Translations under genes and position numbers: made by a program
Shown: positions 3,287 to 42,207 of the stretch, piece after piece
Layout of the letters: every line of letters begins with the position of its first letter
How positions within the stretch are numbered: position 1 is the first letter of the stretch
NCBI RefSeq assembly: GCF_010367435.1
Contig: NZ_WJWY01000019.1
Span: 1-42,307, forward strand
Source of the DNA: Fusobacterium sp. IOR10
GTDB taxonomy: Bacteria > Fusobacteriota > Fusobacteriia > Fusobacteriales > Fusobacteriaceae
Direction: 5' to 3'
DNA length: 42,307 nt
Notes under the pieces: generated by a model
What the model was told of the DNA's origin: nothing
Database searches by the model: none
The model's input: the letters and a program-made list of their open reading frames with translations, nothing else

Positions 3287-3907
3287 TTAAATTTCATCCT
3301 TTATTTTATAACCCATCTCTTTTTCTATTATTTTTCTATTGTCTGCTGAGGTTAACTTTTCTAAAAGTAAAAAAGCTAAATTAATAGCACTTTTAGGATT
3401 TGATGAAGTTATTATATTATCATCTTCTACTATTTCTTCCAAAACCCCATTAGCTCCATATTTATTTAATTGATTAAAATATCTTTTGTTTTCACTTAAG
3501 TATGTTGTTGCTTTTTTATTATTTAGAGTACCTATACTTCCTAGTGCTATTGCTCCTGTACAAATCCCTAAAATTAATTTTTTTCTTTGTACAAATTTAA
3601 AAATAAGTTCCTTTACTTCTTCTCTTAAAAAGTCATCAAAATAACCATATTTTCCAAAGCCTCCAGGTATAACTATTGCATAATAATCTTCCACATTTAT
3701 TTTTTCTTTATTTAAATCTATTTCAGGTATTATTTTCATTCCACTAAAAGAAATTTTTGAAGACAAATCATCAGTAAATGAAGCTGTCACTACTTTTATT
3801 TCCCCATATTTTTTAAAAATTATATTATACCATCCGAATACATCTATAAAGGGAGCTATTTCTAAAATTTCGCTGCCATTGGATATTAAAAGTAATATCT
3901 TTTTCAT
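3287..3907 (-). CDS. DJ-1/PfpI family protein (class I glutamine amidotransferase-like)
   Basis: A 206-residue Rossmann-like protein of the DJ-1/ThiJ/PfpI superfamily. It has the conserved glutamate near the N-terminus (GSEILEI, residues 11-17), PGGFG at 81-85 and the nucleophile elbow LGICTGA with Cys116. Superfamily members include glyoxalase III-like enzymes, chaperones, proteases and regulators, and nothing here decides between them. It is the first gene of a minus-strand cluster (this gene, slyD-like, rpiB, hit). An SD-like GGGTG lies before the ATG, with an upstream region shared with the divergent decarboxylase-arginase gene. Confidence 0.82.
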   Translation of the reverse strand: MKKILLLISNGSEILEIAPFIDVFGWYNIIFKKYGEIKVVTASFTDDLSSKISFSGMKIIPEIDLNKEKINVEDYYAIVIPGGFGKYGYFDDFLREEVKELIFKFVQRKKLILGICTGAIALGSIGTLNNKKATTYLSENKRYFNQLNKYGANGVLEEIVEDDNIITSSNPKSAINLAFLLLEKLTSADNRKIIEKEMGYKIKDEI

Positions 3908-3965: not shown

Positions 3966-3994
3966 TTGACTTAATGAAAAAAGTCAAATACAAT
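3966..3994 (+). promoter_or_regulatory. Promoter with overlapping palindrome for the decarboxylase-arginase gene
   Basis: -35 TTGACT (3966-3971) and -10 TACAAT (3989-3994) are 17 bases apart. An inverted repeat, TTGACTT (3966-3972) with AAGTCAA (3981-3987), covers the -35 box and most of the spacer, where a repressor dimer could sit. A second -10-like TATAAT nearer the gene (about 4052) lacks a convincing -35. Confidence 0.5.
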
Positions 3995-4085
3995 ACCTTG
4001 TTTGATTATATCATAAAAATAAATTTAAATAACAACTTTTTTTTATTTGTTGTATAATATTAAATAAAATATTAAGGAGGTTTGA

Positions 4086-6440
4086 ATGGCTAAATTAGAC
4101 CAAAATTTAACACCATTATTTACAGTTTTAAAAGATGTTTATGCAAAAAAAAATATTACTCCTTTCCATGTTCCTGGACACAAACAAGGGAATGGTATGG
4201 ATAAAGAATTCCTTGAATTTATAGGTAGAAACCCCTTAAAAATAGACGTTACTATTTTTAAAATGGTTGATGGGCTACACCATCCAACAAGTTACATAAA
4301 ACAAGCGCAAGAATTAGCTGCAGATGCCTATGGAGTAGACCAAAGTTTCTTTGCTGTTAATGGTACTTCTGGGGCCATTCAAGCTATGATCCTTGCAGTT
4401 GTAAAATCAGGAGAAAAAATATTAGTTCCTAGAAATGTTCATAAATCTGTTTCTGCTGGAATTATACTATCTGGAGCAATTCCTGTATATATGAATCCTG
4501 AAATTGACAATAATTTAGGAATAGCTCACGGGGTTAAACCTCATACTGTTGAAAAAATGTTAGAACAACATCCAGATGCTAAGGCTGTTTTAATTATCAA
4601 TCCAACTTATTATGGAGTTGCCACTGATATTAAAAAAATAGCTGATATTGTTCATGATTTTGATTTACCATTAATAGTAGATGAAGCTCATGGACCTCAT
4701 CTTCATTTTCATGAAGATCTACCTATCTCAGCAGTTGATGCAGGAGCTGATATTTGTTGTCAAAGTACACATAAGATAATTGGAGCTATGACTCAAATGT
4801 CTTTATTACATGTTAATTCAGATAGAGTTAGCCCTAGTAGAATTCAACAAATACTTAGTCTTTTACATACAACTTCACCTTCATATCCTCTTATGGCATC
4901 ACTTGATTGTGCTAGGAGGCAAATTGCAACAAATGGTAGAGAACTTATTTCAAAGGCTATTGATCTTGCTAACTTTACTAGATCAGAATTAAATAAAATT
5001 CCTGGTGTTTTTTCTTTTGGAGAAGAAATAGTAGGAACAGAAGGAGTATTTGCCTTTGATCCAACAAAGTTGAGTATTTCCATAAAAGAAATGGGAATTA
5101 CAGGATTTGAATTAGAAAGAATTTTAATTGAAGAATATGATATTCAAATGGAACTTTCAGATTTCTATAATGTTTTAGGAGTAATTACTTTAGGAGATTC
5201 TAAAGAAAGTGTTACTAAATTAATTGACGCACTTAAGGATATTAGTTTAAGATTTTTTAACACTAAAGATGTTAAGCCAATAAAATCTATCAGAATTCCT
5301 TCTGTTCCAGAACAAGTTTTAATACCAAGAGAAGCTTTCTACAGTGAAACAAATGTAATCCCTTTTGATGAAAGTGAAGGTAAAATTTGCGCTGAAATGA
5401 TAATGGCTTATCCACCAGGAATTCCAATAATAACTCCTGGGGAAAGAATTAGTAAAGAAATTGTGGATTATGTTTATGAACTTAAAGAAACTAAAATCCA
5501 ACTTCAAGGAATGGAAGATTCTCAATTAAATACTATTAAAGTAATTGAAGAAGAAGACGCTATGTATATCTATACTGAAAAAATGAAAAATAAATTATTT
5601 GGTGTTCCTTTAAATTTAGGGGCAGATAAATCTGGAATAGAATTTGGTATTGACGTTTTAATTGAAAATTATCAAGATACTTTTGATGAAATTGAAGTGA
5701 TTGAAGTTGAAAAACAAAGGGAGAATTTCAATTCTCCAAATTTAAAATATAAAAACACAATTTTGCACACATGCGAAAAACTTGCTAAAGCAGTTGATGA
5801 ATCTATTATGGATGGGTATAGGCCTATAATAATTGGTGGAGACCATTCTATTTCCCTTGGAAGTATTTCTGGTGTTGCAAAAACTAATAGAAATCTTGGA
5901 GTAGTGTGGATTGATGCCCATGCTGACATGAATACAGATGAAACTACATTAACAGGAAACATTCATGGAATGCCGCTTGCTTTACTTCAAGGAGCTGGAG
6001 ACTCTGAGTTAGTTAATTGTTTCTTTGAAGGTCAAAAAATAAATCCTAAAAATGTTGTTATTATTGGTGCTAGAGATATTGATGTAAGAGAATATGATGT
6101 TATTAAAGAACTAGGAGTTAAAGTTATACATTATGATGATATTATTAGAAAAGGTATGGATAATGTATTAGAAGAAATTAAAGATTACTTGAAAGTTGAA
6201 GATATCCATATAAGTTTGGATATTGATTCTATTAATCCTAATTTTGCTCCAGGAGTTAGTACTCCAGTTAAAAATGGTTTAGATGAAGATGATGTTTATA
6301 AGAGTTTTAAATTTTTATTTAAAAATTATTTTATAACTTCTGTGGATATTGTTGAGTATAATCCAATATACGATATGAATCATAAAACTGCACATCTTGT
6401 TAAAGATTTTACAGATTATATTCTAAACCCTATATATTAA
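4086..6440 (+). CDS. Fused Orn/Lys/Arg decarboxylase and arginase (bifunctional)
   Basis: One uninterrupted 784-residue ORF holds two enzymes. Residues 1 to about 490 are a wing-less, Bacillus SpeA-type PLP decarboxylase: HVPGHKQG near residue 28, DEAHGPH with Asp199 and His202, and STHK with the PLP lysine at 230. Residues about 500-784 are a ureohydrolase with the binuclear Mn ligands GGDHS (His587), DAHAD (610-614) and SLDID (Asp712, Asp714). The ureohydrolase looks like arginase (RocF), not agmatinase: it has GNIHGMPL, APGVSTPV and VEYNPIYDMNHKTA. Together they could take arginine through ornithine to putrescine plus urea. If the first domain instead decarboxylates arginine, the partner would have to accept agmatine. 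AAGGAGG precedes the ATG. There is no stop or frameshift at the junction. The gene is monocistronic between a promoter and a terminator. Confidence 0.9.
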   Translation: MAKLDQNLTPLFTVLKDVYAKKNITPFHVPGHKQGNGMDKEFLEFIGRNPLKIDVTIFKMVDGLHHPTSYIKQAQELAADAYGVDQSFFAVNGTSGAIQAMILAVVKSGEKILVPRNVHKSVSAGIILSGAIPVYMNPEIDNNLGIAHGVKPHTVEKMLEQHPDAKAVLIINPTYYGVATDIKKIADIVHDFDLPLIVDEAHGPHLHFHEDLPISAVDAGADICCQSTHKIIGAMTQMSLLHVNSDRVSPSRIQQILSLLHTTSPSYPLMASLDCARRQIATNGRELISKAIDLANFTRSELNKIPGVFSFGEEIVGTEGVFAFDPTKLSISIKEMGITGFELERILIEEYDIQMELSDFYNVLGVITLGDSKESVTKLIDALKDISLRFFNTKDVKPIKSIRIPSVPEQVLIPREAFYSETNVIPFDESEGKICAEMIMAYPPGIPIITPGERISKEIVDYVYELKETKIQLQGMEDSQLNTIKVIEEEDAMYIYTEKMKNKLFGVPLNLGADKSGIEFGIDVLIENYQDTFDEIEVIEVEKQRENFNSPNLKYKNTILHTCEKLAKAVDESIMDGYRPIIIGGDHSISLGSISGVAKTNRNLGVVWIDAHADMNTDETTLTGNIHGMPLALLQGAGDSELVNCFFEGQKINPKNVVIIGARDIDVREYDVIKELGVKVIHYDDIIRKGMDNVLEEIKDYLKVEDIHISLDIDSINPNFAPGVSTPVKNGLDEDDVYKSFKFLFKNYFITSVDIVEYNPIYDMNHKTAHLVKDFTDYILNPIY

Positions 6441-19648: not shown

Positions 19649-20779
19649 TTAGAAATTTTCTGAAAAAGCTTGTAAAGAAGTTCTTGCTTGACCAAAATCT
19701 ACCATTTGTTGGTCAAAACCAAATTTAACATGAGGCATTCCAGCTTCATCTAAAGCTTTTCTTAATGATGGATATTCCATTTCTTCTGGGTCACAGAATT
19801 GCATCATACCTATGATAACACCTTCAGCACCTGCTTTTTTAGCTTGTTCTGCTACATAAGTTGGTCTTGTAAATATAGTTGGATCGTATAAGATAGTATC
19901 GTTATCTTGATTAGCAAATTGAGTTGCTAAAGCTCTCATTGGATCTTTTTCATCCATAGGAACGTCTTCTCTTATTGCTCTTGTTTCTTGAGCTACATCA
20001 TCACCAACTATTACTAATCCATATTCATCAAATAATTGTAATAATTTTGGATTATCCATAATAATTCCAGAAGTGAATACTTTTGCTCCTTTAGGAGTTA
20101 CTTCTGCCATTTTCTTTAATTCTTCATTTAATTCTTTTACTAAAGCTGTATGTTCATCTTTTAATGTAAAGAATGCACTTTTTAATACTGCTGATCTTGA
20201 AACTGCTGATATTACATCTGAATGTTTTCCAGCAAGTTCTATAAATTCTCTTCTTGCTGCTCTACTTTCATTGTATACTTTAAATGCATTAACTAATTTT
20301 TCATCAGTTATTTTTTCTCCAGCTATTTCTTCTAGTTGTCCTTTTATTCTATTATATTCAGTCATTGTATATTTAATTCCATATTCAGGTTTTCTGCTTT
20401 GTGGATGTGCAAGAAACATGAATGGTAATTGAGGAACTGCAACACGGAAATTTTGAGTAAATGGACGTAAAGTATCACATATTGAACTTAATATTACTCC
20501 TGACAATCCATCTAAAGTTCCGTCTAATCCCATTTCTAATCCCATTTGTGCTATTGTACAATAGAATGATGGAAAATATTCTTTTGCTTTATTAGGAGTT
20601 CCACTTTTTCCCCAAACTCCCATTGGTACCATATCTGCTGCATAAACTAATTCTTCTGGAATATAGTATGGAAAACATCCTATAACTTTTTTACCTTGTG
20701 ATTTATATTTAGCTAATTGATTTTTTGGATTATATGCAATGTCTTTAAATTCTTTTATTAATTCTTCTATTCTAGTCAT
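19649..20779 (-). CDS. hgdB: (R)-2-hydroxyglutaryl-CoA dehydratase, beta subunit
   Basis: A 376-residue subunit. With HgdA it dehydrates (R)-2-hydroxyglutaryl-CoA to (E)-glutaconyl-CoA by a ketyl-radical mechanism at a [4Fe-4S] centre. Family features are GKKVIGCFPYYIPEELVYAA near residue 28, FPSFYCTIAQ, SSICDTLRPFTQN and, towards the end, GVIIGMMQFCDPEEMEYP; the cysteines in these segments are the cluster-ligand candidates. The length matches Acidaminococcus HgdB. The start codon overlaps the hgdA stop by one base (TAATG) and its SD lies within the end of hgdA, so translation is coupled. It is the last gene of the operon. Confidence 0.93.
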   Translation of the reverse strand: MTRIEELIKEFKDIAYNPKNQLAKYKSQGKKVIGCFPYYIPEELVYAADMVPMGVWGKSGTPNKAKEYFPSFYCTIAQMGLEMGLDGTLDGLSGVILSSICDTLRPFTQNFRVAVPQLPFMFLAHPQSRKPEYGIKYTMTEYNRIKGQLEEIAGEKITDEKLVNAFKVYNESRAARREFIELAGKHSDVISAVSRSAVLKSAFFTLKDEHTALVKELNEELKKMAEVTPKGAKVFTSGIIMDNPKLLQLFDEYGLVIVGDDVAQETRAIREDVPMDEKDPMRALATQFANQDNDTILYDPTIFTRPTYVAEQAKKAGAEGVIIGMMQFCDPEEMEYPSLRKALDEAGMPHVKFGFDQQMVDFGQARTSLQAFSENF

Positions 20780-22026
20780 TATTTGTTTCCTCCCTCTTTT
20801 GCAGCTTTATTTGCTTCCATTACTTCAAAAAGTCCTTCTACACGAGTATTATATTGTTCTTCAGAGAAGTTTCTTGGATCAGCTTGGTCACCATCAAATC
20901 CTGCAACTGCTACACCTAAATCTTTACGGAATCTTCTTTCCATTTCTGGCATGTAACCACTCCATGGTTTACAACTTCTATTATAATGTACTAAAATTCC
21001 ATCAACATTATTTTCTTTACAAATTGTTTCTCTCCATTCTACACCTTTTTCTATACAAACTGAGTTTGGAGCTTTACAATATGCTGCCATTAATTCATCC
21101 ATATTATTATATTCAAAACCAAATGCAGGAGCATATACAACAGCTGTTGTATTTATTCCTCTTTCTTTTAATGGTTTAAATAATTTTCCTAATTGAGGCC
21201 AACAAGGGATTCCTTCAAACATAATTCTATGATTTTCATCATATTTCCATGTTGATTTTCCTGTTTTTACATTTTCTTCTAATTCTTCAGCTAATTGTTC
21301 AAAAGCTAATGCTGTTGATTTTTTTGCACGGGCAGTAACTATATCTGCCATATGGTTAAATAAATCAAATCCTGCAAAAGGAGCTGGAGTATATTGTAAG
21401 TAACTACATACTTTTAACCATGCTTTTGCTGCTCTATTTGCGTTAGAACAAGCTTCTTCAAATTTTGCCATATCCATTTTACGACCAGCTATTTCTTCTA
21501 ATTTTTTTATAGCATCGTCAAATTGCCCACGAATGTAGTCTATTTTATTTTGATCTGGTTCTTTTGTATTTGCATAAGGAACATCTATCATAATTAGAGG
21601 AATATTATGCATTCTTGCTAGATTTTCATACCATTTTGTCATACAATTACAAATGTTATTACAACATAAAACAAAATCTGGTTGTGGCATTGGTTTTTCT
21701 GCTGCTTCATGTCCTGCAGCGTAAGCTAAGTTTATTCTTGCATAAGCACAAATATCATTGTCAAATCCCATAGCTTCAGCATGTTCACACATTCTTTCTC
21801 CACCATGTTTTGCCCCTATTGCTGCTGCTTGATTTTCTGGATAAACTAAATTTAGTCCTAAAGCTTCTGTTATTTCAGAAGGGAATTTAGAAGATGACCA
21901 CCCTACAGGTTCTCCTCTTTTTTTAGCATCCCATGCTGCTTGGTAAACTTCTCTCTCTACTACTTCTCTAAGTACATATTTTGCAGCTTTTTTTTCTTCA
22001 GCTGGTTTATTTATTGCTTCGCTCAT
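20779..22026 (-). CDS. hgdA: (R)-2-hydroxyglutaryl-CoA dehydratase, alpha subunit
   Basis: A 415-residue partner of HgdB. It shows [20 protein letters not shown] near 38-57, [23 protein letters not shown], and [18 protein letters not shown] near residue 118, which hold the conserved cysteines of the 2-hydroxyacyl-CoA dehydratase alpha family. The C-terminal part has [18 protein letters not shown]. It receives the activating electron from HgdC. The ATG overlaps the hgdC stop by four bases (ATGA), with AAGGAG upstream. The neighbouring gctAB and gcd genes identify the substrate as hydroxyglutaryl-CoA and not lactoyl- or phenyllactyl-CoA. Confidence 0.93.
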
Positions 22027-22823
22027 TTCTTATCCACTCCTTCATATTTTTTATATGCAAACAATGCTGCCCCTATTGCTCCTGTATATTGTGTCAATGG
22101 AGATCTCTTTATTTTATGATTTAAAGTTTCTTCTAGGGCTTCAACCACACCACCATTTAATGCAACTCCCCCTGTCATTACTAAATCATCTTCTATTCCA
22201 ATTCTTTTTGCTAATCCTCCAACTCTTCCTGCTACTGAACGATGGATTCCTTTAATTATATCATTTTTATGAACCCCTTTAGATAATTGAGAAATAACTT
22301 CTGATTCTGCAAATACAGTACAAGTTGAACTTATACTAACATCTTCAGTAGATTTTTCTCCTAATCCCTCAAGCTCACCAATATTAACTTCTAATATTTT
22401 AGCCATTACATCTAAAAATCTTCCTGTTCCTGCTGCACATTTATCATTCATTACAAAATTAATTAGAACTCCGTTTGGACCAACTTTTAAGACTTTAGCA
22501 TCTTGACCACCAATATCTATTACTGTTCGTACATTTGGAAATAAATAATTGGCTCCTTTTGCATGACAACTTAATTCACTCATTTGGTTATCTGCCCATT
22601 CTAATAAAGAATTACGACCATATCCTGTAGCTAAAATATAGCTGATATCTTCTCTAGAAAGACCTGCTGCCTTAGTTACTTCTTCTATAACTCTTTTTGG
22701 CCCACTAGTTCCTGCCCCTACATCAATAACTGCTTTACTTATTATTTCTTTTCCGTCTTTTAGTATAACACTTTTTGATGCTGTAGAACCTATATCAATT
22801 CCCATTGTATATATAGCGCTCAT
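22023..22823 (-). CDS. hgdC: 2-Hydroxyglutaryl-CoA dehydratase activator (component A, ATP-driven)
   Basis: A 266-residue homodimeric ATPase of the ASKHA (actin/hexokinase) fold. It injects one high-potential electron into HgdAB at the cost of ATP. It shows [18 protein letters not shown] (phosphate 1), DIGGQDAKV (phosphate 2) and the two cluster cysteines Cys129 ([11 protein letters not shown]) and Cys168 ([11 protein letters not shown]). Such activators are extremely oxygen-sensitive. The ATG at 22821-22823 was chosen since GGAGG lies just before it and the protein then begins like characterised HgdC; a longer frame to 22868 was rejected. A stable intercistronic hairpin lies upstream. Confidence 0.93.
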
Positions 22824-22895
22824 TATTCCTCCAATCAAAATTATATCTGTCAATATTTCATTTTCCATAACTTTATAGTTATATATGATAATGCA

Positions 22896-22934
22896 AGATT
22901 ATCTCTCCCCTCTTAAAGAGGAAAGAGATAATCT
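22896..22934. promoter_or_regulatory. Intercistronic hairpin between gcdA and hgdC
   Basis: An 11-bp perfect outer stem (22896-22906 with 22924-22934) surrounds an inner 6-bp CCTCTT/AAGAGG stem. On the transcribed (minus) strand no U run follows, so it is more likely an mRNA processing or stability element, or a partial stop, than a full terminator. Confidence 0.6.
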
Positions 22935-22961
22935 CAGCTATTTCATATTTTTAAATTTTTA

Positions 22962-24719
22962 TTACTTTTTAAAAGTTTGAAATTCACGTATAGCTCTTGG
23001 TAATAACATTTGATGGAATGCACATATTGATTTTGGATTTTGATAAGCTGCCTCTGCGAAAGCTTCTATATATCCACGCATTGCCTTCATATCAATAATC
23101 TCATCAATCATTCCTGCTGCTGCACATGGTAAAGGTCTTGATTCAGCAGTGAATTTCTCAATTAATTTATTCATTTTATCTATTGTTGGTTGTAAATCTT
23201 TTCCAGCTTTTTTATCTTTAGCAAGTCTTCTTGAGTACATTGCTGAAGCTGCTGTTTCTCCATTCATTACATAAACTTCAGATGCTGCTGTTCCTAGTGA
23301 GAATACATTTGTATTATTCCCTTGAGGTCCTCCAAGAACATAATGAGCTGCAGCTGATGCTTTTCTTAAAGTTAATTCTACTTGAGGTACTTTTGAGTTT
23401 TCAATTGAATATATTAAAGATTGACCTAATCCTAATAATTCAGCTTTTTCTGCCTCATCCCCAACATCTATTCCTGTTGTATCTTGTAACCAAACTATTG
23501 GAAGACGATCTCTACCACATAAAGTTACAAATTCATTCATTTTTACAAGTCCTTGACGGTATAGTTTTCCACCAATTCCTATTGAATTTTCTTTATATTC
23601 TGGATATTTCATTAGTAATCCTTGAGCATTAGCAACGACTCCTACTAATAATCCGTTTACTTTTGCCATTCCTGTAACAACTTCTGGTCCATAACCTTTT
23701 TTATATTCAGAAAATTCACTGTTATCAAATAAACGTCCTATTACTTGGTATACGTCATAAGTTTTCTTTTGGTTCATAGGAATTATTGTATATAAATCTT
23801 CTGAATCAAATTTAGGTAATGCTGGATCATCTACTCTAAAGAAATCTAAATTATAAGCAGGAAGCATTCCTAAATATTTTTTAATTCCTTCTAGTACTCC
23901 TAATTCTTCTTGATATACTTCTCTCATGAATCCAGTTTCATTGAAATGAACTGAAACTGATCCTGGTGGTAATTGTTTTTTAGAATTGTTAACCATGTCT
24001 GCCATTTGTTCTGCAGATTCCATGTCAACATATCCTTTAGGATTCATTCCACCTAATATTCCTGCTCCACCAACTGCCATATTAGCATTTCTATGAGCAA
24101 CTAATATTGTTGGACTGATACTGTGGTATCCTCCACCAGCTGGGTTTGTTCCATAAATTCCTACAATTACAGGAATTCCTAATTGTTGTAATTCTGCATT
24201 TCTAAAGAATGGAGTTCCTCCACCACGTCTGTTAGGATAAACTCTATCTTGTTCGTCGAATTTAACACCACTACAGTTTAAAATATATACTAAAGGTATA
24301 TTTAATAATTTTGCTGTGTCAGATCCTCTTAATAAACTTTCTGCTTGACCTTTTATCCAAGCTCCAGCTAATTTTTTGTTGTCAGATGCAACTATTACAG
24401 CCCATCTTCCATCTATTTTACCTAAACCTTTTACAATCCCAACAGTTCCATGATCGTTTCCTTCTGGATTAAATAAAGAGTTTAATGGACACCAAGTCCC
24501 TTTATCTATTAACGCATCAATACGTTGTAAAGCTGTCATTTGTCCAGATTTATTTAAAGATTCTGTTGGACGCCCTGCTTCTTGAGCTGCTTTTATAGCT
24601 GCTTGTATTTCTTTTTCAACTTTTTTTATAGCTTCTTTATTTTCCTCGTTTGCTGCAGGAATAGGTTTACCTACTACAGGCATACCTTGAAAATATCTTG
24701 GCATTGAATAATTTTTCAT
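22962..24719 (-). CDS. gcdA: Glutaconyl-CoA decarboxylase, alpha (carboxyltransferase) subunit
   Basis: A 585-residue carboxyltransferase of the crotonase superfamily. It moves CO2 from glutaconyl-CoA to the biotin of GcdC, giving crotonyl-CoA. The N-terminal half has NPEGNDHGTVGIVKGLGKIDG and GGGTPFFRNAELQQLGIP. The C-terminal half has LPIVWLQDTTGIDVGDEAE and the oxyanion-hole-type VLGGPQGNNTNVFSLG. The length matches Acidaminococcus GcdA. AGGAGG lies before the ATG. It sits after gctAB and before hgdCAB, the gene order known from glutamate fermenters. Other acyl-CoA carboxyltransferases (propionyl-, methylmalonyl-) are related, but the context settles the substrate. Confidence 0.93.
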   Translation of the reverse strand: MKNYSMPRYFQGMPVVGKPIPAANEENKEAIKKVEKEIQAAIKAAQEAGRPTESLNKSGQMTALQRIDALIDKGTWCPLNSLFNPEGNDHGTVGIVKGLGKIDGRWAVIVASDNKKLAGAWIKGQAESLLRGSDTAKLLNIPLVYILNCSGVKFDEQDRVYPNRRGGGTPFFRNAELQQLGIPVIVGIYGTNPAGGGYHSISPTILVAHRNANMAVGGAGILGGMNPKGYVDMESAEQMADMVNNSKKQLPPGSVSVHFNETGFMREVYQEELGVLEGIKKYLGMLPAYNLDFFRVDDPALPKFDSEDLYTIIPMNQKKTYDVYQVIGRLFDNSEFSEYKKGYGPEVVTGMAKVNGLLVGVVANAQGLLMKYPEYKENSIGIGGKLYRQGLVKMNEFVTLCGRDRLPIVWLQDTTGIDVGDEAEKAELLGLGQSLIYSIENSKVPQVELTLRKASAAAHYVLGGPQGNNTNVFSLGTAASEVYVMNGETAASAMYSRRLAKDKKAGKDLQPTIDKMNKLIEKFTAESRPLPCAAAGMIDEIIDMKAMRGYIEAFAEAAYQNPKSICAFHQMLLPRAIREFQTFKK

Positions 24720-24756
24720 TCTTTCCTCCTGAATTTTTATTTTACTTCAAAATTAA

Positions 24757-25557
24757 CTATTTAGATTCCGCAGGCACTTTTATAAAAGCTTGTCCTGGAT
24801 CAATTTCTTCTCTTATTAATTTTATTACTTCTGGATCAGGAGCGTCTAATTTAACTGCTCTTGAAACATCTATATCAAAACCTGTATTTGCTATTACATC
24901 TTCTGGAGATGAAGTTGGATAGTATCCTGCTAAATACATACGTTTAGTTTCATCATCAAACTTAAGTATTCCTCTATCTGTTACTACCATAACTGGTCCT
25001 CTGTTTCCAGGAAGTCCTACTTTTTCACGACCTCCAGGTCCGTCCATCCATCCTGCAGATGTTATGTAATCAACCTCTTTCATAAATCTTCTTTTTTCAT
25101 GTTGCATCATGATTATTGTATTTGAATAAGTAGCTATACCATTTGCTCCACCTGAACCTGTGAATCTAGTTTTTGGATGGTTATAGTCTCCTATTGATGT
25201 TGAGTTAACATTTCCATATGGATCTATTTGAGCTCCACCTATGAAAGCTATTAATCTATCTGTATCATGTAACCATTCATTTGCTTCAAATCCTATGAAT
25301 CTTACATTTGGCCATTGAACACCACAATGTGCCATGAATCTGTTGTCACCAACACTTCTTGGAACTTCTATTGGAGCGCAATCCATTAAACCACTTTCTA
25401 CTATTAAGTTACATCCTGGAGCAAATACTCTTTTAGCAAGAGAAGCACCTATTAAAGGAAGCCCTGTCCCTACTATAACTATTTGTCCATCTTTTATTTG
25501 TCTTCCTATTGTAACTGCTTGCATTTCTTTATTAGTATATTTAGTATAATCTGCCAT
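24757..25557 (-). CDS. gctB: Glutaconate CoA-transferase, subunit B
   Basis: A 266-residue subunit of the class I CoA-transferase. It moves CoA from acetyl-CoA to (R)-2-hydroxyglutarate or glutaconate. The catalytic glutamate is Glu54 in NLIVESGLMD, the same number as in the characterised Acidaminococcus enzyme. GSGGANGIATYSNTIIMMQH, which helps bind CoA, follows. It starts two bases after the gctA stop, with AAGGAGG inside the end of gctA, so the two subunits are probably translated in equal amounts. Confidence 0.93.
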   Translation of the reverse strand: MADYTKYTNKEMQAVTIGRQIKDGQIVIVGTGLPLIGASLAKRVFAPGCNLIVESGLMDCAPIEVPRSVGDNRFMAHCGVQWPNVRFIGFEANEWLHDTDRLIAFIGGAQIDPYGNVNSTSIGDYNHPKTRFTGSGGANGIATYSNTIIMMQHEKRRFMKEVDYITSAGWMDGPGGREKVGLPGNRGPVMVVTDRGILKFDDETKRMYLAGYYPTSSPEDVIANTGFDIDVSRAVKLDAPDPEVIKLIREEIDPGQAFIKVPAESK

Positions 25558-25559
25558 TG

Positions 25560-26522
25560 CTATTTTACCTCCTTAGCTGCTTTAGCATATCCAAGTCCTG
25601 GAACATTTTTTAAATCAATTAAACGCATAGCACCTAATTTATTCAAATAAGCCTCATGAGTTGGTACATCATATATCCACTCTTGTAAGAAAGCATCAAA
25701 ATCTTCTTGTGTTTTACTTACAACATCATACATTTTTAAGAATTTATTATCATAATCATAATAATCATAACATTGAGATGGATGTGCTCCATAAGGGGCA
25801 TGGATAACTGCGTCAACACAGAATCCAGGTATTGATGTTAATGCTGGATTTAAACGAATTTGTTCATTACTTATTACTTCTTCACAAGTAACTATACAAC
25901 GTTTCCCTGCTACAGCTATATCTACATCATGGAATTCGTCTCCTAAAATTACACAAGTTCCATCTGGTGAAGCTTGTTGTACATGAATTATAGCTAAATC
26001 TATTGTAGGAACTGGAACAGCTACTACTTTTTCTCCTTCTTTAAAAGGATTATCTACATAAATAAATTTATCATTAGGTAATTTGTCTATTGTTTTTCTA
26101 ACTTCTTTAGATATTCCCCATTTGTTTACAAGATCTGTTCCCATCATTAAACGAACTGGTAAATAAGGTAATCCTAATGATGCAGCATGTAACATTAACA
26201 TGATTACATCTTGAGAATAATCTTCCATATTTAATTTTCCTTGTTCGAACCAAGCTCTGAAACGTCTTGAAACATTTGTTACTCCTGAATTTGCAGTATA
26301 ACAGTTAATATAAGCTTTTACTCTCCCTGCTCCTATTAATGTATCCCAGTCTCCTCCTGCAGGTCCTGATTCACCTACAAAATCTGTAAATCCTTGTCTT
26401 AAAATTTCATTAACTATTGCGTATGGTTTTCTATTTGTAGTAAAACCACCTATAACCATGTGATCTCCATTTTTGACATATTTTGCTACTGCCTCTTTTA
26501 AAGACATTACTTTGTTCTCCAC
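25560..26522 (-). CDS. gctA: Glutaconate CoA-transferase, subunit A
   Basis: A 320-residue partner of GctB. It shows GDHMVIGGFTTNRKPYAIVNEI near residue 19, GESGPAGGDWD and later HVQQASPDGTCVILGDEFHD, the class I CoA-transferase alpha-subunit features. The start appears to be a GTG at 26520-26522, because GGGAGG lies eight bases upstream; the first ATG (codon 6) has no SD. The 76 bases between gcdB and this gene contain no clear promoter, so it is probably transcribed from the operon promoter at 28561-28589. Confidence 0.92.
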   Translation of the reverse strand: MENKVMSLKEAVAKYVKNGDHMVIGGFTTNRKPYAIVNEILRQGFTDFVGESGPAGGDWDTLIGAGRVKAYINCYTANSGVTNVSRRFRAWFEQGKLNMEDYSQDVIMLMLHAASLGLPYLPVRLMMGTDLVNKWGISKEVRKTIDKLPNDKFIYVDNPFKEGEKVVAVPVPTIDLAIIHVQQASPDGTCVILGDEFHDVDIAVAGKRCIVTCEEVISNEQIRLNPALTSIPGFCVDAVIHAPYGAHPSQCYDYYDYDNKFLKMYDVVSKTQEDFDAFLQEWIYDVPTHEAYLNKLGAMRLIDLKNVPGLGYAKAAKEVK

Positions 26523-26598
26523 GTCAAAAACCTCCCTTTAATTTTATTTTTTTAATTAAATTATAATCTTATACTTTATTTATATTTAAAACAATTTT

Positions 26599-27738
26599 TT
26601 ACCCAAATATCATCATAAAGAATCCAGCAGCTACTGCTGAACCTATAACACCTGCAACATTAGGACCCATTGCATGCATTAATAAGAAATTAGTTGGATT
26701 TGCTTTTGCTCCTTCAACTTGTGCAACTCTAGCTGCCATTGGTACTGCAGAAACTCCAGCTGCTCCTATTAATGGATTTATTTTCCCTTTTGTTAAGAAA
26801 CATAGTAATTTTCCTAATAACAATCCACCTGTAGTAGAGAAACAGAAAGCTAAAAGTCCCATTCCTATAATTGCTAAAGTTTGAGTTCTTAAGAATATAA
26901 CTCCATCAGATGTTGCTCCAACTGCTAATCCTAACATAATTGTTACTATGTTACACAAAGCATTTTGACATGTATCTGTTAAACGACCTACTACTCCTGA
27001 TTCTCTCATTAGATTTCCATACATTAACATTCCAATTAATGGAGCTACTGAAGGAAGTAATAAAGAACAGAATAATGTTACGAATACTGGGAATACAACT
27101 TTTTCAGTTTTAGTAACTTTTCTTAATTGTCCCATTTTTATTTTTCTTTCTTTTTCTGTAGTTAATAGTCTCATAATTGGCGGTTGAATCATTGGAATTA
27201 ACGCCATATAAGAATAGGCTGCAACTGCTATTGGAGCTACTAGTTGTGGAGCTAAATTATTTGCAATATATATTGCTGTTGGTCCATCTGCTCCTCCTAT
27301 AATTCCTATAGCTGCTGCTTCACCAACTGAGAATAATCCAGTTGCATTAGCTAACATAAAGGCTATATAAATACCAAATTGAGCTGCTGCTCCTAAAACC
27401 AAACTAATTGGGTTTGCAATTAAAGGTCCAAAATCAGTCATTGCTCCAACACACATAAATATTAAACATGGGAATAAACTACTTTTTACCCCGTTATATA
27501 TTATTCTTAAAATTCCTGATGAATACCAAGGATCTGCATGCTTCATCAAGTCTGCTAAAGGTAAGTTTGCTAAAAACATCCCAAAAGCTATTGGTAAAAG
27601 TAATAATGGTTCAAATTTTTTAACAATAGCTAGATATATTAGTACAAAAGCTACTAACATCATAACAGCTTGCTGCCAACTTATTGCTAAGAAACCTGAT
27701 TGCATCAGTAATTCTTTTAATACTGTAAAAAAGTTCAT
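26599..27738 (-). CDS. gcdB: Glutaconyl-CoA decarboxylase, beta subunit (Na+-translocating)
   Basis: A 379-residue membrane protein with about ten hydrophobic segments, of the OadB/MmdB/GcdB family. It decarboxylates carboxybiotin on GcdC and couples the free energy to export of Na+. Typical segments are [20 protein letters not shown] near 140-160, [16 protein letters not shown], and [16 protein letters not shown] near 325-340; these glycine-rich polar helices build the Na+ path. AGGAGG precedes the ATG. It lies directly after the biotin carrier gene. It makes the primary Na+ gradient that GltS, the alanine carrier and NhaC in this window could use. Confidence 0.93.
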
Positions 27739-27751
27739 TTAATGTTCCTCC

Positions 27752-28156
27752 TTATTTAAGAACAACTAAAGTTGCGTCTGTATCTACTGCATCACCTTTT
27801 TTAACAAGAACAGATTCTACTGTTCCGTCAGCTGAAGCAACTACTTCTGTTTCCATCTTCATAGCTTCTAGTATAACTACTACTTGTCCGTATTTAACTG
27901 TATCCCCAGCTTGAACTTTAACTTCTAAAACAGTTCCTGGTAAAGGACTTACTATACTTGAATCTCCTGCTGCTACTGGTGCTGGAGTTGCTGCTACTGG
28001 TGCTGGTGCTGCTTGAACTGGTGCTGCTTGAACTGGTGCTGCTGCAATAACTACATTAGGATTTGTTATTTCTTCACGTGTTAAAGCTCTGTACTCTTCA
28101 ACTTTTTCTAATTCAACCTCATATTTTTTTCCGTTTAATGTTGCTATGTATTTCAT
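27752..28156 (-). CDS. gcdC: Glutaconyl-CoA decarboxylase, gamma subunit (biotin carrier)
   Basis: A 134-residue biotin carrier. A short N-terminal domain (MKYIATLNGKKYEVELEKV) is joined by an Ala/Pro-rich linker (residues about 38-63, with VQAAP and APVAA repeats) to a biotinyl domain with EAMKMETEV. Lys100 is the biotinylated residue. The flexible linker lets biotin move between GcdA and the membrane-bound GcdB. The linker is much shorter than in some relatives. The ATG at 28154-28156 was chosen since AAAGGTGGGG lies upstream; a GTG five codons earlier is inside that SD. The bio operon at 37619-42063 could supply its cofactor. Confidence 0.92.
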   Translation of the reverse strand: MKYIATLNGKKYEVELEKVEEYRALTREEITNPNVVIAAAPVQAAPVQAAPAPVAATPAPVAAGDSSIVSPLPGTVLEVKVQAGDTVKYGQVVVILEAMKMETEVVASADGTVESVLVKKGDAVDTDATLVVLK

Positions 28157-28198
28157 ATTAATATACCCCACCTTTCAATTTTTATTTTAGTTTTTAGT

Positions 28199-37618: not shown

Positions 37619-38287
37619 CTATTTGGAACATAAAAAATATCCAACACTATATGAAAGACTTTTATCCTTGAAAGTTCTTATTTTACGAACAGATGATTTT
37701 GAATTTATCCCTACACCTGTTTTTTTCAAATGTCTCAATGCATCTAATGGTTCTTCAAAATTAATAACCTTATCTTCTTCCCAGCTTTCAACTTCTGAAA
37801 AATTTTTCTTTAATAATAACATGATTTCTTCCCTTGTTTTGTAATCTAAGCTAATATTAAAATGTTCTTGAATTTCTTTTAAATTACCCTTTAGATATAC
37901 AGAAAACGCTAATTTGTCAGTAGTTTTAGAAATATCCTTAAATAAGCTTTCTAAATCCTCTATCCATTGAAAACTAGAGCTTGAAATAACTAAATCATAT
38001 TTTTCTTTTAAACATTTAGACATATCTTCTTTTATAAATTTATGATATTTTATATCTGATAAATATTCTCTAGTATCAAAATAATCATTTAGATTTAGTT
38101 TTTCTACTTCTAAATTTTTTATAACATATCTTGTAAATATTCCTGTTCCACACCCCAATTCAATAACTTTGGAATAATTAGTTTTTTTAAATTTATTATT
38201 TATTAAATCAATTAGTTTTTTGGCCACTTGTTTTTGTACTATTGCATTATCATCATATGTTGAAAAGTTTTTATTAAATTCTTTCAT
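37619..38287 (-). CDS. bioC: Malonyl-ACP O-methyltransferase BioC
   Basis: A 222-residue SAM methyltransferase. It begins FNKNFSTYDDNAIVQKQVAKKL, typical of BioC, then has motif I KVIELGCGTGIFTRYV and the DLVISSSSFQWIEDLESLF segment. BioC methylates the free carboxyl of malonyl-ACP so that the fatty-acid machinery can build pimeloyl-ACP for biotin. It follows bioG by two bases. It is the last gene of the bio operon. Confidence 0.9.
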   Translation of the reverse strand: MKEFNKNFSTYDDNAIVQKQVAKKLIDLINNKFKKTNYSKVIELGCGTGIFTRYVIKNLEVEKLNLNDYFDTREYLSDIKYHKFIKEDMSKCLKEKYDLVISSSSFQWIEDLESLFKDISKTTDKLAFSVYLKGNLKEIQEHFNISLDYKTREEIMLLLKKNFSEVESWEEDKVINFEEPLDALRHLKKTGVGINSKSSVRKIRTFKDKSLSYSVGYFLCSK

Positions 38288-38289
38288 AA

Positions 38290-38877
38290 TTATCTTAATA
38301 TATCCTCCCAGCTTTTTAATTGAGAAAAAATATAATGACCTCCATCTACTTTTTTTATCTCTACGTCCTTTGATTCATAATATTTATTTTGATTTTTACT
38401 TTTTATTATTTTATCATTTATGCTAATAATAGCCTTTGAAACTTTATTTTCTTGAGGACTGTAGTTGTCTTTTAAATATTGAAGTTCATAAATTAATTCA
38501 TCTATTTTCTTGCTTTTGGTCATAAATTTGTAATCCATATTAATATAAAATTTTTCTAAATTTTCTTCATTCATATGCTTTAAAGTTAAGTTATAAACTT
38601 TTTCTGGAATTCCATTTTTACCAATTATTTCAGGAGTTCCATTTATAGCTATAACATCTTCGTAGCTAATGTCTTTATTTTTATTTAAAAATTCACACAT
38701 ATAATACACACCAAAAGACCATCCTACAAATATTTTTCTTTTGTAATTTTCTAATTTAACTTTATCTATTTTATAAGGAAAGGATATATTTAAGACTTCA
38801 TAATTTGTTTTGTTTTCTAATTTTTTTAAAATTTTTTCATCCATTCCCCAGCCATTAAAAAATATTATTATATTCAT
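38290..38877 (-). CDS. bioG: Pimeloyl-ACP methyl ester esterase BioG (DUF452)
   Basis: A 195-residue alpha/beta-hydrolase of the DUF452/BioG group. It opens NIIIFFNGWGMDEKILKKL and has the nucleophile elbow VGWSFGVYYM with Ser54. The C-terminal VDGGHYIFSQLKSWEDIL carries the likely catalytic histidine. BioG removes the methyl group installed by BioC, ending pimeloyl-ACP synthesis, in place of BioH. AAGGAA precedes the ATG. The gene overlaps bioF by 23 bases, so translation is probably coupled. Confidence 0.88.
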   Translation of the reverse strand: MNIIIFFNGWGMDEKILKKLENKTNYEVLNISFPYKIDKVKLENYKRKIFVGWSFGVYYMCEFLNKNKDISYEDVIAINGTPEIIGKNGIPEKVYNLTLKHMNEENLEKFYINMDYKFMTKSKKIDELIYELQYLKDNYSPQENKVSKAIISINDKIIKSKNQNKYYESKDVEIKKVDGGHYIFSQLKSWEDILR

Positions 38878-39979
38878 ATTTAAATTCCTTTAAAAAAATT
38901 TCCATATCCTTTTTTGTTATATTTGGATTTAAACCTATTCTTATTCTCTCTGTTCCTTTCCCCACTGTTGGACTTTTAATAGAATAAACTATATATCCTT
39001 TGCTTCTTAAATTTTTTGAAATTATATCCACTTTTTGGTTATCTCCCACAACTAAACCTAATATATGGGAATCTGAAACTACATTTATTTCTAATTCTTT
39101 TATTTTAAGAAAAGTAAATTCTATTAATTCTTTTAATTTCTTTCTTCTGTCTTCAAATTTATCCATATTTTTTAAGATAAATAAATTCCAAAAAATATTA
39201 ACTGGAGGTAAACTTGTAGTATAAATAAATTCTTTCCCACAATTTATTAAATAATCCTTATAATAATCTTCACAAATTATATAAGCTCCTATGGATCCTC
39301 CGCCTTTTCCCAATGGAATAACTAAAAAATCAATATCCTTGATTAAGTTTAAATTATAAGAAATCCCATATCCAAAAACTCCATAAGAATGTGCCTCATC
39401 TATCATTAAAGAACAATTGTACTTTTTTTTAAGCTCTACTAATTTTTTTAAGTTAGCTGTATCTCCTTCCATACTGTAAATAGTTTCAGAAACAATTAAT
39501 ATATCCTTATATTTTTCTGAGTATTTTTTCAATATGCTTTCAAGGTGATCCATATCTAGATGTTTATATCTAGATATTTTACAATTACTTAATATTATTC
39601 CATTATATATACTTGCATGATTTAGTTTGTCTGTTATTATTAGGGAATTTTTATTATAAAAAGTTTCTATTATTGTCTTATTTGCTGAAAATCCACTATT
39701 CATAACAAGAGCTGGTTTTTCATAAATTTCCTCTAATTGTACTTCTAATTTTATAATTCCATTATAATTTCCTGTGATTAATCTAGAAGAACTAGATGAT
39801 AAATATACTTCCTCTTTAAATTCTTCATAAAATTTTTCTTTCAATTTATCGTCATGAGCCAATCCTAAATAATCATTTGAAGATAAATTTAAATCTTTTT
39901 CATTGAAAATTTTCAATGTTCTAAAGTTATTTTCTTGTTTTTTTTTATTTAACTCTAATATTATTTCATCTTTTTTCAT
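38855..39979 (-). CDS. bioF: 8-Amino-7-oxononanoate synthase
   Basis: A 374-residue PLP enzyme (alpha-oxoamine synthase family) that joins pimeloyl-ACP and alanine. It shows NLSSNDYLGLAHD near 31-43, SSSSRLITGNY, NSGFSANKTII, IVSETIYSMEGDTANL, MIDEAHSYGVFG (PLP-pyridine Asp) and VIPLGKGGGSIGAY with the Schiff-base lysine. The canonical TFGKALG appears here as PLGKGGG, a minor variation. Family members also make 2-amino-3-ketobutyrate, but the bio neighbours settle the role. The SD is GGAAG. Confidence 0.92.
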   Translation of the reverse strand: MKKDEIILELNKKKQENNFRTLKIFNEKDLNLSSNDYLGLAHDDKLKEKFYEEFKEEVYLSSSSSRLITGNYNGIIKLEVQLEEIYEKPALVMNSGFSANKTIIETFYNKNSLIITDKLNHASIYNGIILSNCKISRYKHLDMDHLESILKKYSEKYKDILIVSETIYSMEGDTANLKKLVELKKKYNCSLMIDEAHSYGVFGYGISYNLNLIKDIDFLVIPLGKGGGSIGAYIICEDYYKDYLINCGKEFIYTTSLPPVNIFWNLFILKNMDKFEDRRKKLKELIEFTFLKIKELEINVVSDSHILGLVVGDNQKVDIISKNLRSKGYIVYSIKSPTVGKGTERIRIGLNPNITKKDMEIFLKEFKYEYNNIF

Positions 39980-40013
39980 AGTTATAATCTTCCTTATATT
40001 TCAAAATTAAAGT

Positions 40014-41384
40014 TTATTTTTTATTTGAAAGAAATTCATCAATTGAAATTTTACAAATACTTACCATTTCATCTATTTCTTCTTTTGATATTATAAATGG
40101 AGGTAAGAAATAAATAGTATCTCCCAATGGTCTCAATATTGCTCCATTTTTTAAAGCAGTTTTATATATCCCATATCCAACTCTTTCCTTTGAAGAAAAT
40201 CTTTCTTTTGTTTTTTTATCTTTTACAATTTCTAAAACACCTATCATTCCTATTCTTCTTATTTCTCCTATGTTTTCATTTTCTCCAAAAACTTCTTTCA
40301 TTTTTGCCTCTAGATAGTCTCCTTTTTCATTTATTTGAGCTAATATATTTTCCTCTTCATAAATTTTTAGAACTTCCAAGGCAATTCTACACCCTAAAGG
40401 ATTTCCTGAGAAACTGTGAGAATGTAAAAAAGATTTTCCTTCTGAATAATCAGCATAGAAAGAATCATATATTTCTTCTCTCATACAAACTATAGACATT
40501 GGATAGTATCCTGCTGTTAAGGCTTTTCCCACAGTCATTATATCTGGAGAAATTCCTGCCCATTCACTGGCAAACATTTTCCCAGTTCTTCCAAATCCCA
40601 TAGCTATTTCATCAACAATCATAACTATATTTAATTCCTCTGTTACTTCTCTTAATTTTCTTAAATATTTTGGAGAATATATTTTCATTCCCCCTGCTCC
40701 TTGAACAATAGGCTCAACAATTACTGCTGCTATTTCTTCATGATTTTCTCTTAATTCTTTTTCCATATATGAAAAACATTCTGCTCCACAAGTTTTGTAT
40801 TCTTTATTAAATTTACATTTAAAACATTCAGGGCCCTCAACTTTAACTGCTTCTTTTATTAATGGTCTATATGTTTTTGTGAAAAAATCAATATCTCCAA
40901 CAGCTAACGCTCCTATTGTTTCACCGTGATATGAATTTTTAATTGTTACAAATTTTCTTTTCTTTTCATAACCCCTTTGGTTTTGAGATTGGTAAGCTAG
41001 CTTTAAAGCTATCTCTACACCTGAGGATCCATTATCTGCAAAAAATAATTTTGATAACCCCTCTGGTAAAAGTTCAACTAATTTTTCTGAAAGTTCTATA
41101 GCAGGCTTATGGGAAAAATTAGAAAAAATTACATGCTCTAAAGTATTCGCTTGATCAATTAACACCTTATTTATTCTTTCATTACAATGTCCTAAAGGAT
41201 TTAACCACCAACTTGCAATACAATCCATATATTTTTTTCCAAATTCATCATACACGTACATCCCCTTTGCTTTTTCTATAACAATTGGAGGAAAATCTTC
41301 ATAATCTTTCATTTGAGAACAAGGATGGAATATATGTTTTAAATCTCTTTTTTGTAATTCACTTAAATTTTTATTTATTTTCAT
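40014..41384 (-). CDS. bioA: Adenosylmethionine-8-amino-7-oxononanoate aminotransferase
   Basis: A 456-residue class III PLP aminotransferase that uses S-adenosylmethionine as amino donor to make 7,8-diaminopelargonate. It shows CSQMKDYEDFPPIVIEKAKG and SWWLNPLGHCNERIN near the N-terminus, typical of BioA. Later come FADNGSSGVEIALKLAYQ, NSYHGETIGALAVGD, MIVDEIAMGFGRTGKMFA and MTVGKALTAGYYPMS with the PLP lysine. GGGGAG precedes the ATG. It overlaps the end of bioD by 14 bases. A four-cysteine segment (CFKCKFNKEYKTCGAEC, near residues 196-212) could bind a metal. Confidence 0.92.
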   Translation of the reverse strand: MKINKNLSELQKRDLKHIFHPCSQMKDYEDFPPIVIEKAKGMYVYDEFGKKYMDCIASWWLNPLGHCNERINKVLIDQANTLEHVIFSNFSHKPAIELSEKLVELLPEGLSKLFFADNGSSGVEIALKLAYQSQNQRGYEKKRKFVTIKNSYHGETIGALAVGDIDFFTKTYRPLIKEAVKVEGPECFKCKFNKEYKTCGAECFSYMEKELRENHEEIAAVIVEPIVQGAGGMKIYSPKYLRKLREVTEELNIVMIVDEIAMGFGRTGKMFASEWAGISPDIMTVGKALTAGYYPMSIVCMREEIYDSFYADYSEGKSFLHSHSFSGNPLGCRIALEVLKIYEEENILAQINEKGDYLEAKMKEVFGENENIGEIRRIGMIGVLEIVKDKKTKERFSSKERVGYGIYKTALKNGAILRPLGDTIYFLPPFIISKEEIDEMVSICKISIDEFLSNKK

Positions 41385-42063
41385 TTTTTTTCTCCCCTAA
41401 TAAATTAATTAAATCATTTTTTTCTAAACTTTTTTGACCTTTTTTTACTGTTATATAATTTTTTATTTCACTATCCTCTAATACCACGCTAATATTATCA
41501 TCTTCATATTTTTCCCCAGTATATCCATTAAAAACTATTCCTTGAATTTCAATTCCTTTTGTTTTTAAAAATTCTATTGTTAGCATAGTATGATTTATTC
41601 CTCCAACCTTAGTACTTGAAACTAAAATAATCGGTAATTTTAACTCTTTCATAATATCAAACATATAAACTTTATTTCTTATAACTGGAACGTATACTCC
41701 CCCTGCTCCTTCAACTATAACAGTTGAGTATTCTTTCTTTTTTATTTTTATTTTTTCATAAATTTTATTAATATCTATTTCCTTATTTTCCATTTCAGCT
41801 GCAAGATGAGGTGATACTTCTGGCATTAAAGTAACAGTACACATATCCTTATCATATTCAACTCCACTAAAATCACATACAAATTTAACATCTGGAGCTA
41901 TTATTTTATCAGCTTTATAAAAACATCCACTTTGAATAGGTTTATAATAACCTGCATTCTCCCTTTCTTTTAAAGCTTTGTAGAGTAAAGCACTTATGTA
42001 AGTTTTCCCTATATCTGTCCCTATCCCAGTAACAAAATATCCTGATTTTAATTCTTTTTCCAA
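41371..42063 (-). CDS. bioD: Dethiobiotin synthetase
   Basis: A 230-residue P-loop enzyme that closes the ureido ring from diaminopelargonate, CO2 and ATP. It shows the Walker A FVTGIGTDIGKTYISALL at the N-terminus, GYYKPIQSGC, VEGAGGVYVPV and ILVSSTKVGGINHTMLTIE, typical of BioD. The start is read as a TTG (42061-42063) because GGGAGTG lies eight bases upstream and the conserved sequence begins there. A longer open frame to 42192 runs into the IS element and is not coding. It is the first gene of the operon. Confidence 0.9.
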   Translation of the reverse strand: MEKELKSGYFVTGIGTDIGKTYISALLYKALKERENAGYYKPIQSGCFYKADKIIAPDVKFVCDFSGVEYDKDMCTVTLMPEVSPHLAAEMENKEIDINKIYEKIKIKKKEYSTVIVEGAGGVYVPVIRNKVYMFDIMKELKLPIILVSSTKVGGINHTMLTIEFLKTKGIEIQGIVFNGYTGEKYEDDNISVVLEDSEIKNYITVKKGQKSLEKNDLINLLGEKKNENK

Positions 42064-42100
42064 AAAAATCACTCCCTTTAAACTTTTATCAAACACAATC

Positions 42101-42157
42101 ATTATATATTTAAAATGGTTAATATTACAATAAAAAATATCTTGAAGGTTAACATTA
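42101..42157 (-). promoter_or_regulatory. Promoter and tandem operator candidate of the bio operon
   Basis: On the minus strand -35 TTGTAA (42125-42130), an 18-base spacer and -10 TATAAT (42101-42106). Two copies of TAAYATTAACC (plus-strand GGTTAAYATTA at 42117-42127 and 42147-42157) lie 30 bases apart in the same orientation. One is mainly within the spacer and the other upstream of the -35. TTAACC resembles the half-site of Gram-positive BirA operators, but the two copies are direct, not inverted. Confidence 0.55.
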
Positions 42158-42182
42158 AGAAATATAAAAAAGTCCCCCTTAA

Positions 42183-42207
42183 TGTAGTGCACCCAAAATC
42201 TTAGACA
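42183..42207 (+). repeat. IS left terminal inverted repeat
   Basis: The 25-mer begins TGTAGTGCACCC and ends CTTAGACA. It matches the reverse complement of 103-127 at 20 of 25 positions. Confidence 0.75.

What the first reader, a model, noticed from the sequence alone, without database searches (positions are those of the whole stretch)
4086..6440. Single polypeptide fusing a PLP amino-acid decarboxylase to an arginase
The 784-residue ORF holds a full SpeA-type decarboxylase (PLP Lys230) and a full arginase with all Mn-ligand motifs. The ureohydrolase has arginase, not agmatinase, features. The simplest reading is arginine to ornithine to putrescine plus urea in one protein, an arrangement I do not know from classical polyamine pathways. 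The decarboxylase would then be an ornithine decarboxylase within a SpeA-like family.
Basis: partly seen in the sequence, partly recalled or inferred. Interest (0 to 1): 0.65.

Follow-up and report, generated by a model that had tools for sequence, protein, structure and literature searches.

The report
Ornithine decarboxylase fused to intact arginase
A Fusobacterium relative encodes one protein that appears able to turn arginine into ornithine and then into putrescine; the fusion is already known from Fusobacterium nucleatum, where the arginase half is judged dead, but here and in most of the family that half keeps every catalytic residue.

Summary
Window 4086-6440 is one uninterrupted 784-codon ORF with a complete OKR decarboxylase (PLP Lys230) and a complete arginase-fold ureohydrolase. 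It is no assembly artefact: the same fusion is full-length in 49 other Fusobacteriaceae genomes.

The fusion is not new. Li et al. 2021 (PMC8503589) and Xu et al. 2025 (PMC12826042) describe it in F. nucleatum ("oda"), showed ornithine decarboxylase activity, and judged the arginase half dead because two Mn-binding Asp are Ser and Asn.

What appears unreported is that the window protein does not share that defect. All six Mn ligands, the catalytic His and Glu and most arginine-binding residues are present, and they are invariant in 46 fused proteins from 45 genomes. The "dead arginase" state belongs to the F. nucleatum clade plus two single lineages: three independent losses from a most simply intact ancestor. 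Some other relatives have kept only one half: one genome arginase only, two decarboxylase only.

Best explanation: arginine to ornithine plus urea, then ornithine to putrescine plus CO2, in one polypeptide. Arginase activity is inferred, not assayed.

The parts
4086..6440 (+). 784-codon fusion gene (orthologue of F. nucleatum oda)
   Evidence: full-length homologues
4086..5549 (+). Residues 1-488: ancestral-form AAT-fold decarboxylase, predicted L-ornithine decarboxylase
   Evidence: Pfam PF01276/PF03711; nests with ODC-type relatives, 45 of 53 diagnostic columns ODC-like
4773..4775 (+). PLP Schiff-base lysine, Lys230 (QSTHK)
   Evidence: Invariant in 67 of 67 rows
5550..5582 (+). Short linker, residues 489-499
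   Evidence: Between the two domains; low pLDDT at 496-499 in the model
5583..6437 (+). Residues 500-784: arginase-fold ureohydrolase with intact active site
   Evidence: PF00491; 8d27 and B. subtilis arginase are the best structural matches
5844..5846 (+). Mn ligand His587 (human Arg1 H101)
5913..5927 (+). Mn ligands D610, H612, D614 (DAHAD; human D124, H126, D128)
   Evidence: D610 is Ser in the F. nucleatum clade
5964..5966 (+). Catalytic His627 (human H141)
6219..6227 (+). Mn ligands D712 and D714 (human D232, D234)
   Evidence: D714 is Asn in the F. nucleatum clade
6354..6356 (+). Guanidinium-binding Glu757 (human E277)
3966..3994 (+). Promoter-like site TTGACT-17-TACAAT; similar TTGACT...TACAAT-type sequence upstream of many orthologues
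   Evidence: Sequence read; upstream regions of orthologues (by eye, not a statistical test)
4074..4080 (+). Ribosome-binding site AAGGAGG

Best explanation
The gene encodes a two-enzyme protein for making putrescine from arginine. The C-terminal half is predicted to be a working Mn-dependent arginase (arginine + water to ornithine + urea). The N-terminal half is predicted to be a PLP-dependent L-ornithine decarboxylase (ornithine to putrescine + CO2). Shown here: one ORF, both domains complete, the known catalytic residues and most substrate-binding residues kept, and conservation of those residues across the family. Inferred: arginase activity, ODC specificity in this particular protein, and use of arginine as the main source. 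Not claimed: physical channelling of ornithine between the two sites.
For: Both domains complete in one ORF. Six Mn ligands, H141 and E277 equivalents, and arginine-binding N130, N139, D183, E186 equivalents are invariant in 46 fused proteins from 45 genomes, while only 59 of 281 arginase-domain columns are invariant. Loop A between the metal site and the catalytic His has the arginase length with Asn at position 130, whereas agmatinase has a loop three residues shorter (PMC9224512). Profile scores: arginase 224 bits against agmatinase 102 and HutG 98. dN/dS of the arginase half within the genus is 0.05-0.18, close to the decarboxylase half. One relative, G018, keeps an intact arginase half at the same locus with no decarboxylase half, which suggests the arginase is useful by itself. 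ODC: the window domain sits in one clade with the F. nucleatum-type enzymes, whose type is shown to be ODC (PMC8503589), and matches them at 45 of 53 columns that separate them from ADC-type relatives. No arginine deiminase above cut-off in 61 family genomes, and 33 of the 45 genomes with an intact fusion show neither OTC nor ArgC above cut-off (my count), leaving arginase as the only ornithine route found there.
Against: No assay. The arginase half scores just under the TIGR01229 equivalog cut-off (224 vs 227.6 bits). The window's own genome has an argC-J-B-D-F cluster, so it can probably make ornithine without arginase. The only family members studied experimentally were judged arginase-inactive. 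Position 137 (human Ser) is Thr here, though Thr and Ser both occur among intact relatives.
Confidence: 0.8

Rival explanations
1. As concluded for F. nucleatum, the arginase half is a catalytically dead structural or regulatory appendage and only the ornithine decarboxylase works.
For: Stated for F. nucleatum, where two Mn-binding Asp are Ser and Asn (PMC8503589; PMC12826042). The F. nucleatum decarboxylase domain alone has activity similar to the whole protein.
Against: The two replaced residues are Asp in the window protein and in the other 45 intact fused proteins; replacements occur only in five proteins on three separate branches.
Confidence: 0.12
2. The protein makes putrescine by the other order: the decarboxylase turns arginine into agmatine and the C-terminal half is an agmatinase.
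For: The decarboxylase fold includes arginine decarboxylases (SpeA), and agmatinase belongs to the same ureohydrolase family.
Against: Arginase-length loop A with Asn130, and Asp183/Glu186 equivalents kept; arginase profile score more than twice the agmatinase score. The decarboxylase groups with ODC-type relatives and away from the ADC-type ones.
Confidence: 0.05
3. Mainly a catabolic arginase that disposes of arginine nitrogen as urea; putrescine is a by-product. (This can overlap with the best explanation, because both halves would be active.)
For: G018 keeps the arginase half alone. Clear urease hits occur in 8 of 61 family genomes.
Against: No clear urease in the window's genome; dead-arginase lineages keep 162-165 of 165 decarboxylase invariants, so putrescine synthesis is usually the function kept when one is lost; oda is essential for putrescine in F. 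nucleatum (PMC12826042).
Confidence: 0.1

Closest known systems
F. nucleatum Oda, ODC/arginase fusion (Li et al. 2021 PMC8503589; Xu et al. 2025 PMC12826042; structure 8d27 of its arginase domain)
   Same: Same two domains in the same order, nearly the same length (783 vs 784 aa); the F. nucleatum-clade genomes here are 68-69% identical to the window protein
   Different: F. nucleatum arginase half lacks two Mn-binding Asp (Ser609, Asn713) and has Glu for the D183 equivalent; the window protein has all of them
F. necrophorum ancestral-form ODC (WP_005954404, 490 aa; PMC8503589)
   Same: Decarboxylase family; unfused genomes that look like this type (g6) are 70-71% identical to the window domain
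   Different: No arginase half; g6 is placed inside the fused clade, so most simply a later loss of it
Bacillus subtilis arginase (6nfp, 6dkt)
   Same: Fold, six Mn ligands, His141 and Glu277 equivalents
   Different: Stand-alone protein; about 40% identity
Psychrilyobacter ancestral-form ADC with agmatinase (PMC8503589)
   Same: Homologous decarboxylase in the same family of bacteria; leads to putrescine
   Different: Arginine decarboxylase with a separate agmatinase gene; the ADC-type relatives here are 44-47% identical to the window domain
Trypanosoma brucei arginase-like protein without a Mn cluster (cited in PMC8503589)
   Same: Parallel case of an arginase fold that lost its metal site
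   Different: Relevant to the dead lineages, not to the window protein

Membership tests
Fusobacteriaceae ODC-arginase fusion (Oda) | N-terminal ancestral-form OKR decarboxylase and C-terminal arginase-fold domain in one ORF | tested here: met
Fusobacteriaceae ODC-arginase fusion (Oda) | Found in Fusobacteriaceae | tested here: met
   Present across most genera of the family and absent from the other families of the order searched; a same-genus genome matches a record named Fusobacterium sp. (L049)
Fusobacteriaceae ODC-arginase fusion (Oda) | Loss of two Mn-binding Asp, as in F. nucleatum | tested here: not met
   D610 and D714 present; the loss is a trait of the F. nucleatum clade, not of the whole fusion family
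Arginase (EC 3.5.3.1) | Six Mn ligands, catalytic His and Glu | tested here: met
Arginase (EC 3.5.3.1) | Arginine-specific loop A length with Asn130, and loop B Asp183 | tested here: met
   residues against PMC9224512
Arginase (EC 3.5.3.1) | Above TIGR01229 equivalog cut-off | tested here: not met
   224.0 vs 227.6 bits, a near miss; the unfused relative in G018 scores 228.3
Arginase (EC 3.5.3.1) | Hydrolyses arginine to ornithine and urea | not testable with these tools
   Needs an assay
Ancestral AAT-fold ornithine decarboxylase | PLP lysine and OKR fold | tested here: met
Ancestral AAT-fold ornithine decarboxylase | Groups with tested ODCs rather than ADCs | tested here: met
   the assayed proteins were represented by relatives, not by their own sequences
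Ancestral AAT-fold ornithine decarboxylase | Prefers ornithine | not testable with these tools
   Shown for the F. necrophorum protein, and ODC activity for F. nucleatum, in PMC8503589; not for this one

The most novel reading that the evidence does not exclude
A catalytically complete arginine-to-putrescine enzyme in one polypeptide is the ancestral state of the Fusobacteriaceae fusion, possibly with ornithine handed from one active site to the other; the well-known F. nucleatum protein is a degenerate form, and the arginase half has been switched off at least three times and discarded at least once.
Probability: 0.7. Interest if true: 0.6.

Novelty: new variant of a known kind. Interest (0 to 1): 0.5.

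Why it matters
The papers found treat the arginase half of this protein as non-functional, on the basis of F. nucleatum alone. If the intact form works, most fusobacteria could make putrescine from arginine with one protein and would not need ornithine from neighbours, unlike F. nucleatum, which is reported to benefit from ornithine released by streptococci. Putrescine is essential in F. nucleatum and affects biofilms and host cells. The repeated loss gives a natural test of what decides whether a cell keeps or drops arginase, and a set of orthologues for testing whether fused sequential enzymes pass their intermediate along.

Tried and rejected
Assembly or frameshift artefact: rejected, because 49 other genomes carry the fusion uninterrupted. 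Agmatinase reading: rejected on loop A, profile scores and decarboxylase grouping. Riboswitch or other known RNA control of the gene: no Rfam match in the window. A conserved operator: the TTGACTT-8-AAGTCAA inverted repeat upstream occurs only in the window and its nearest relative, so it was not pursued. A simple rule that arginase is kept only where ornithine cannot be made: not supported, since the window's own genome and about a dozen others have OTC and/or ArgC together with an intact arginase. Separate decarboxylase and arginase genes side by side: none in any fetched locus at E 1e-10. No paper on structure 8d27 was found.

Full report
Observation. Window 4086-6440 (+) is a single 784-codon ORF with an AAGGAGG ribosome-binding site just before its ATG. 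Pfam finds the OKR decarboxylase major domain at residues 9-374, its C-terminal domain at 391-477 and an arginase domain at 504-776. The PLP lysine is Lys230. An AlphaFold model built on 37 family sequences has mean pLDDT 80.7, with about 90 over most of the arginase half, but a pTM of only 0.59, so the placement of the halves relative to each other should not be trusted. Its best PDB matches are the F. nucleatum arginase domain 8d27 (rmsd 1.3 over 282 columns), Bacillus arginases and bacterial OKR decarboxylases.

Not an artefact. The window lies in a 2.03 Mb genome in 74 contigs, 99.94% complete. All seven genomes of the genus have the fusion at 79-100% identity. In the family, 50 of 61 genomes including this one carry a full-length fused ORF, down to 54% identity; one genome carries two. 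In other families of the order the decarboxylase occurs without the arginase half.

Prior knowledge. Li et al. 2021 (PMC8503589) reported that the F. [quoted passage not shown] Xu et al. 2025 (PMC12826042) showed that oda is essential for putrescine supply in F. nucleatum and repeated that the arginase half is non-functional. I found no paper saying whether this holds in other species; the library is open-access only, so this is not proof of absence.

The window protein differs. Its Mn ligands are H587, D610, H612, D614, D712 and D714, all intact, as are H627 and E757. The arginine-binding positions N616, N625, D666 and E669 (human N130, N139, D183, E186) are also kept; the Ser137 position is Thr, and Ser and Thr both occur among intact relatives. 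The stretch from the metal site to the catalytic His has the same length as in human arginase. Mutational work shows that this loop decides arginase against agmatinase specificity, and that agmatinase has it three residues shorter (PMC9224512).

Family-wide pattern. Of 51 fused proteins (duplicates removed), 46 from 45 genomes have all six ligands and the catalytic pair; in these, 59 of 281 arginase-domain columns are invariant, and all six ligands are among them (chance of drawing six such columns 7e-5, a rough figure because intact sequences were selected on those columns). Five proteins have lost ligands: three of genus group g4 (H-S-H-D-D-N), G049 (H-G-H-D-D-D with the catalytic His replaced by Asn) and G043 (H-G-R-G-D-G). 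The F. nucleatum structure 8d27 is 80-91% identical to the g4 proteins and falls among them in the tree, so g4 is the F. nucleatum clade. On a tree built without the active-site columns the dead state needs three changes, and the deepest fused relatives (g10, g13, g14) are intact, so the ancestor of the fusion was most simply intact. The dead proteins still keep 162-165 of 165 decarboxylase invariants.

Loss of whole halves. Two g6 genomes have an unfused decarboxylase of about 490 residues, matching the F. necrophorum type of Li et al. by length and fusion state; I did not have the F. necrophorum sequence to confirm it. They sit inside the fused clade as sister to the F. nucleatum clade (bootstrap 100, SH-aLRT 99). 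An AU test against keeping all fused proteins together gave p = 0.03, on a quick tree and with the group chosen after seeing the tree, so it is moderate evidence. No arginase remnant is found beside them. Conversely G018 has a 285-residue arginase with all ligands intact, beginning at the point where the arginase half starts, beside the same DJ-1-like neighbour, and with no matching decarboxylase. Two g4 genomes, G021 and G023, have a separate arginase from a different branch elsewhere in the genome.

Decarboxylase specificity. The window domain is in the same well-supported clade as the F. nucleatum and g6 enzymes and apart from the ADC-type relatives. Of 53 columns that separate those ODC-type from ADC-type sequences, the window has the ODC residue in 45, the ADC residue in 3 and another in 5. 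That the reference groups are ODC and ADC rests on assays of named relatives in PMC8503589.

Metabolic setting. No family genome has arginine deiminase above the profile cut-off. OTC is above cut-off in 17 of 61 and ArgC in 13 of 61, with a shorter ArgC-like protein in the three g12 genomes. By my count from these tables, 33 of 45 genomes with an intact fusion have neither, so arginase is the only ornithine source detected; several of these assemblies are incomplete. The window's own genome is an exception: contig C20 carries argC, argJ, argB, argD and argF in a row (named from the ORF sequences; OTC and ArgC by profile). It has no clear urease hit. Intact arginase therefore does not track ornithine auxotrophy exactly.

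Conclusion. The fusion is real and known; the catalytically complete form in this window and in most of the family is, as far as I could find, undescribed. The most likely function is putrescine synthesis from arginine in one protein, with arginase activity the main inferred step.

Noticed in passing
window 3287-3907 (-): A DJ-1/PfpI-like gene lies divergently upstream of the fusion; a homologue lies beside the fusion in all 7 genomes of the genus, 12 g5 loci, 10 g3 loci and single g2 and g11 loci. Role unknown.
   Followed up: partly
window 3966-3987: Inverted repeat TTGACTT-8-AAGTCAA overlapping the promoter-like site, seen only here and in the nearest relative G004.
   Followed up: partly
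L136 2479-3336 (G018): Arginase half alone, with intact ligands, at the orthologous locus; the decarboxylase half is missing. The Asn139 equivalent is His, as in the stand-alone g14 arginases.
   Followed up: yes
G021 C1:1228617-1229477 and G023 C27:15655-16497: Separate arginase genes (302 bits to TIGR01229 for the G021 one) in two genomes of the clade whose fused arginase half is dead; in G021 it follows an elongation factor P-like gene.
   Followed up: partly
window 19649-28171 (-): Cluster resembling the hydroxyglutarate pathway of glutamate fermentation: 2-hydroxyglutaryl-CoA dehydratase subunits and activator, CoA-transferase, glutaconyl-CoA decarboxylase subunits (read from ORFs, not searched).
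   Followed up: no
window 37619-42192 (-): ORFs resembling biotin synthesis genes bioC, bioG-like, bioF, bioA, bioD in a row (read from ORFs, not searched).
   Followed up: no
L171 140-5521 (G000 contig C20): argF, argD, argB, argJ, argC cluster in the window's genome; OTC and ArgC hits are also in G004, but not in the five other genomes of the genus.
   Followed up: partly
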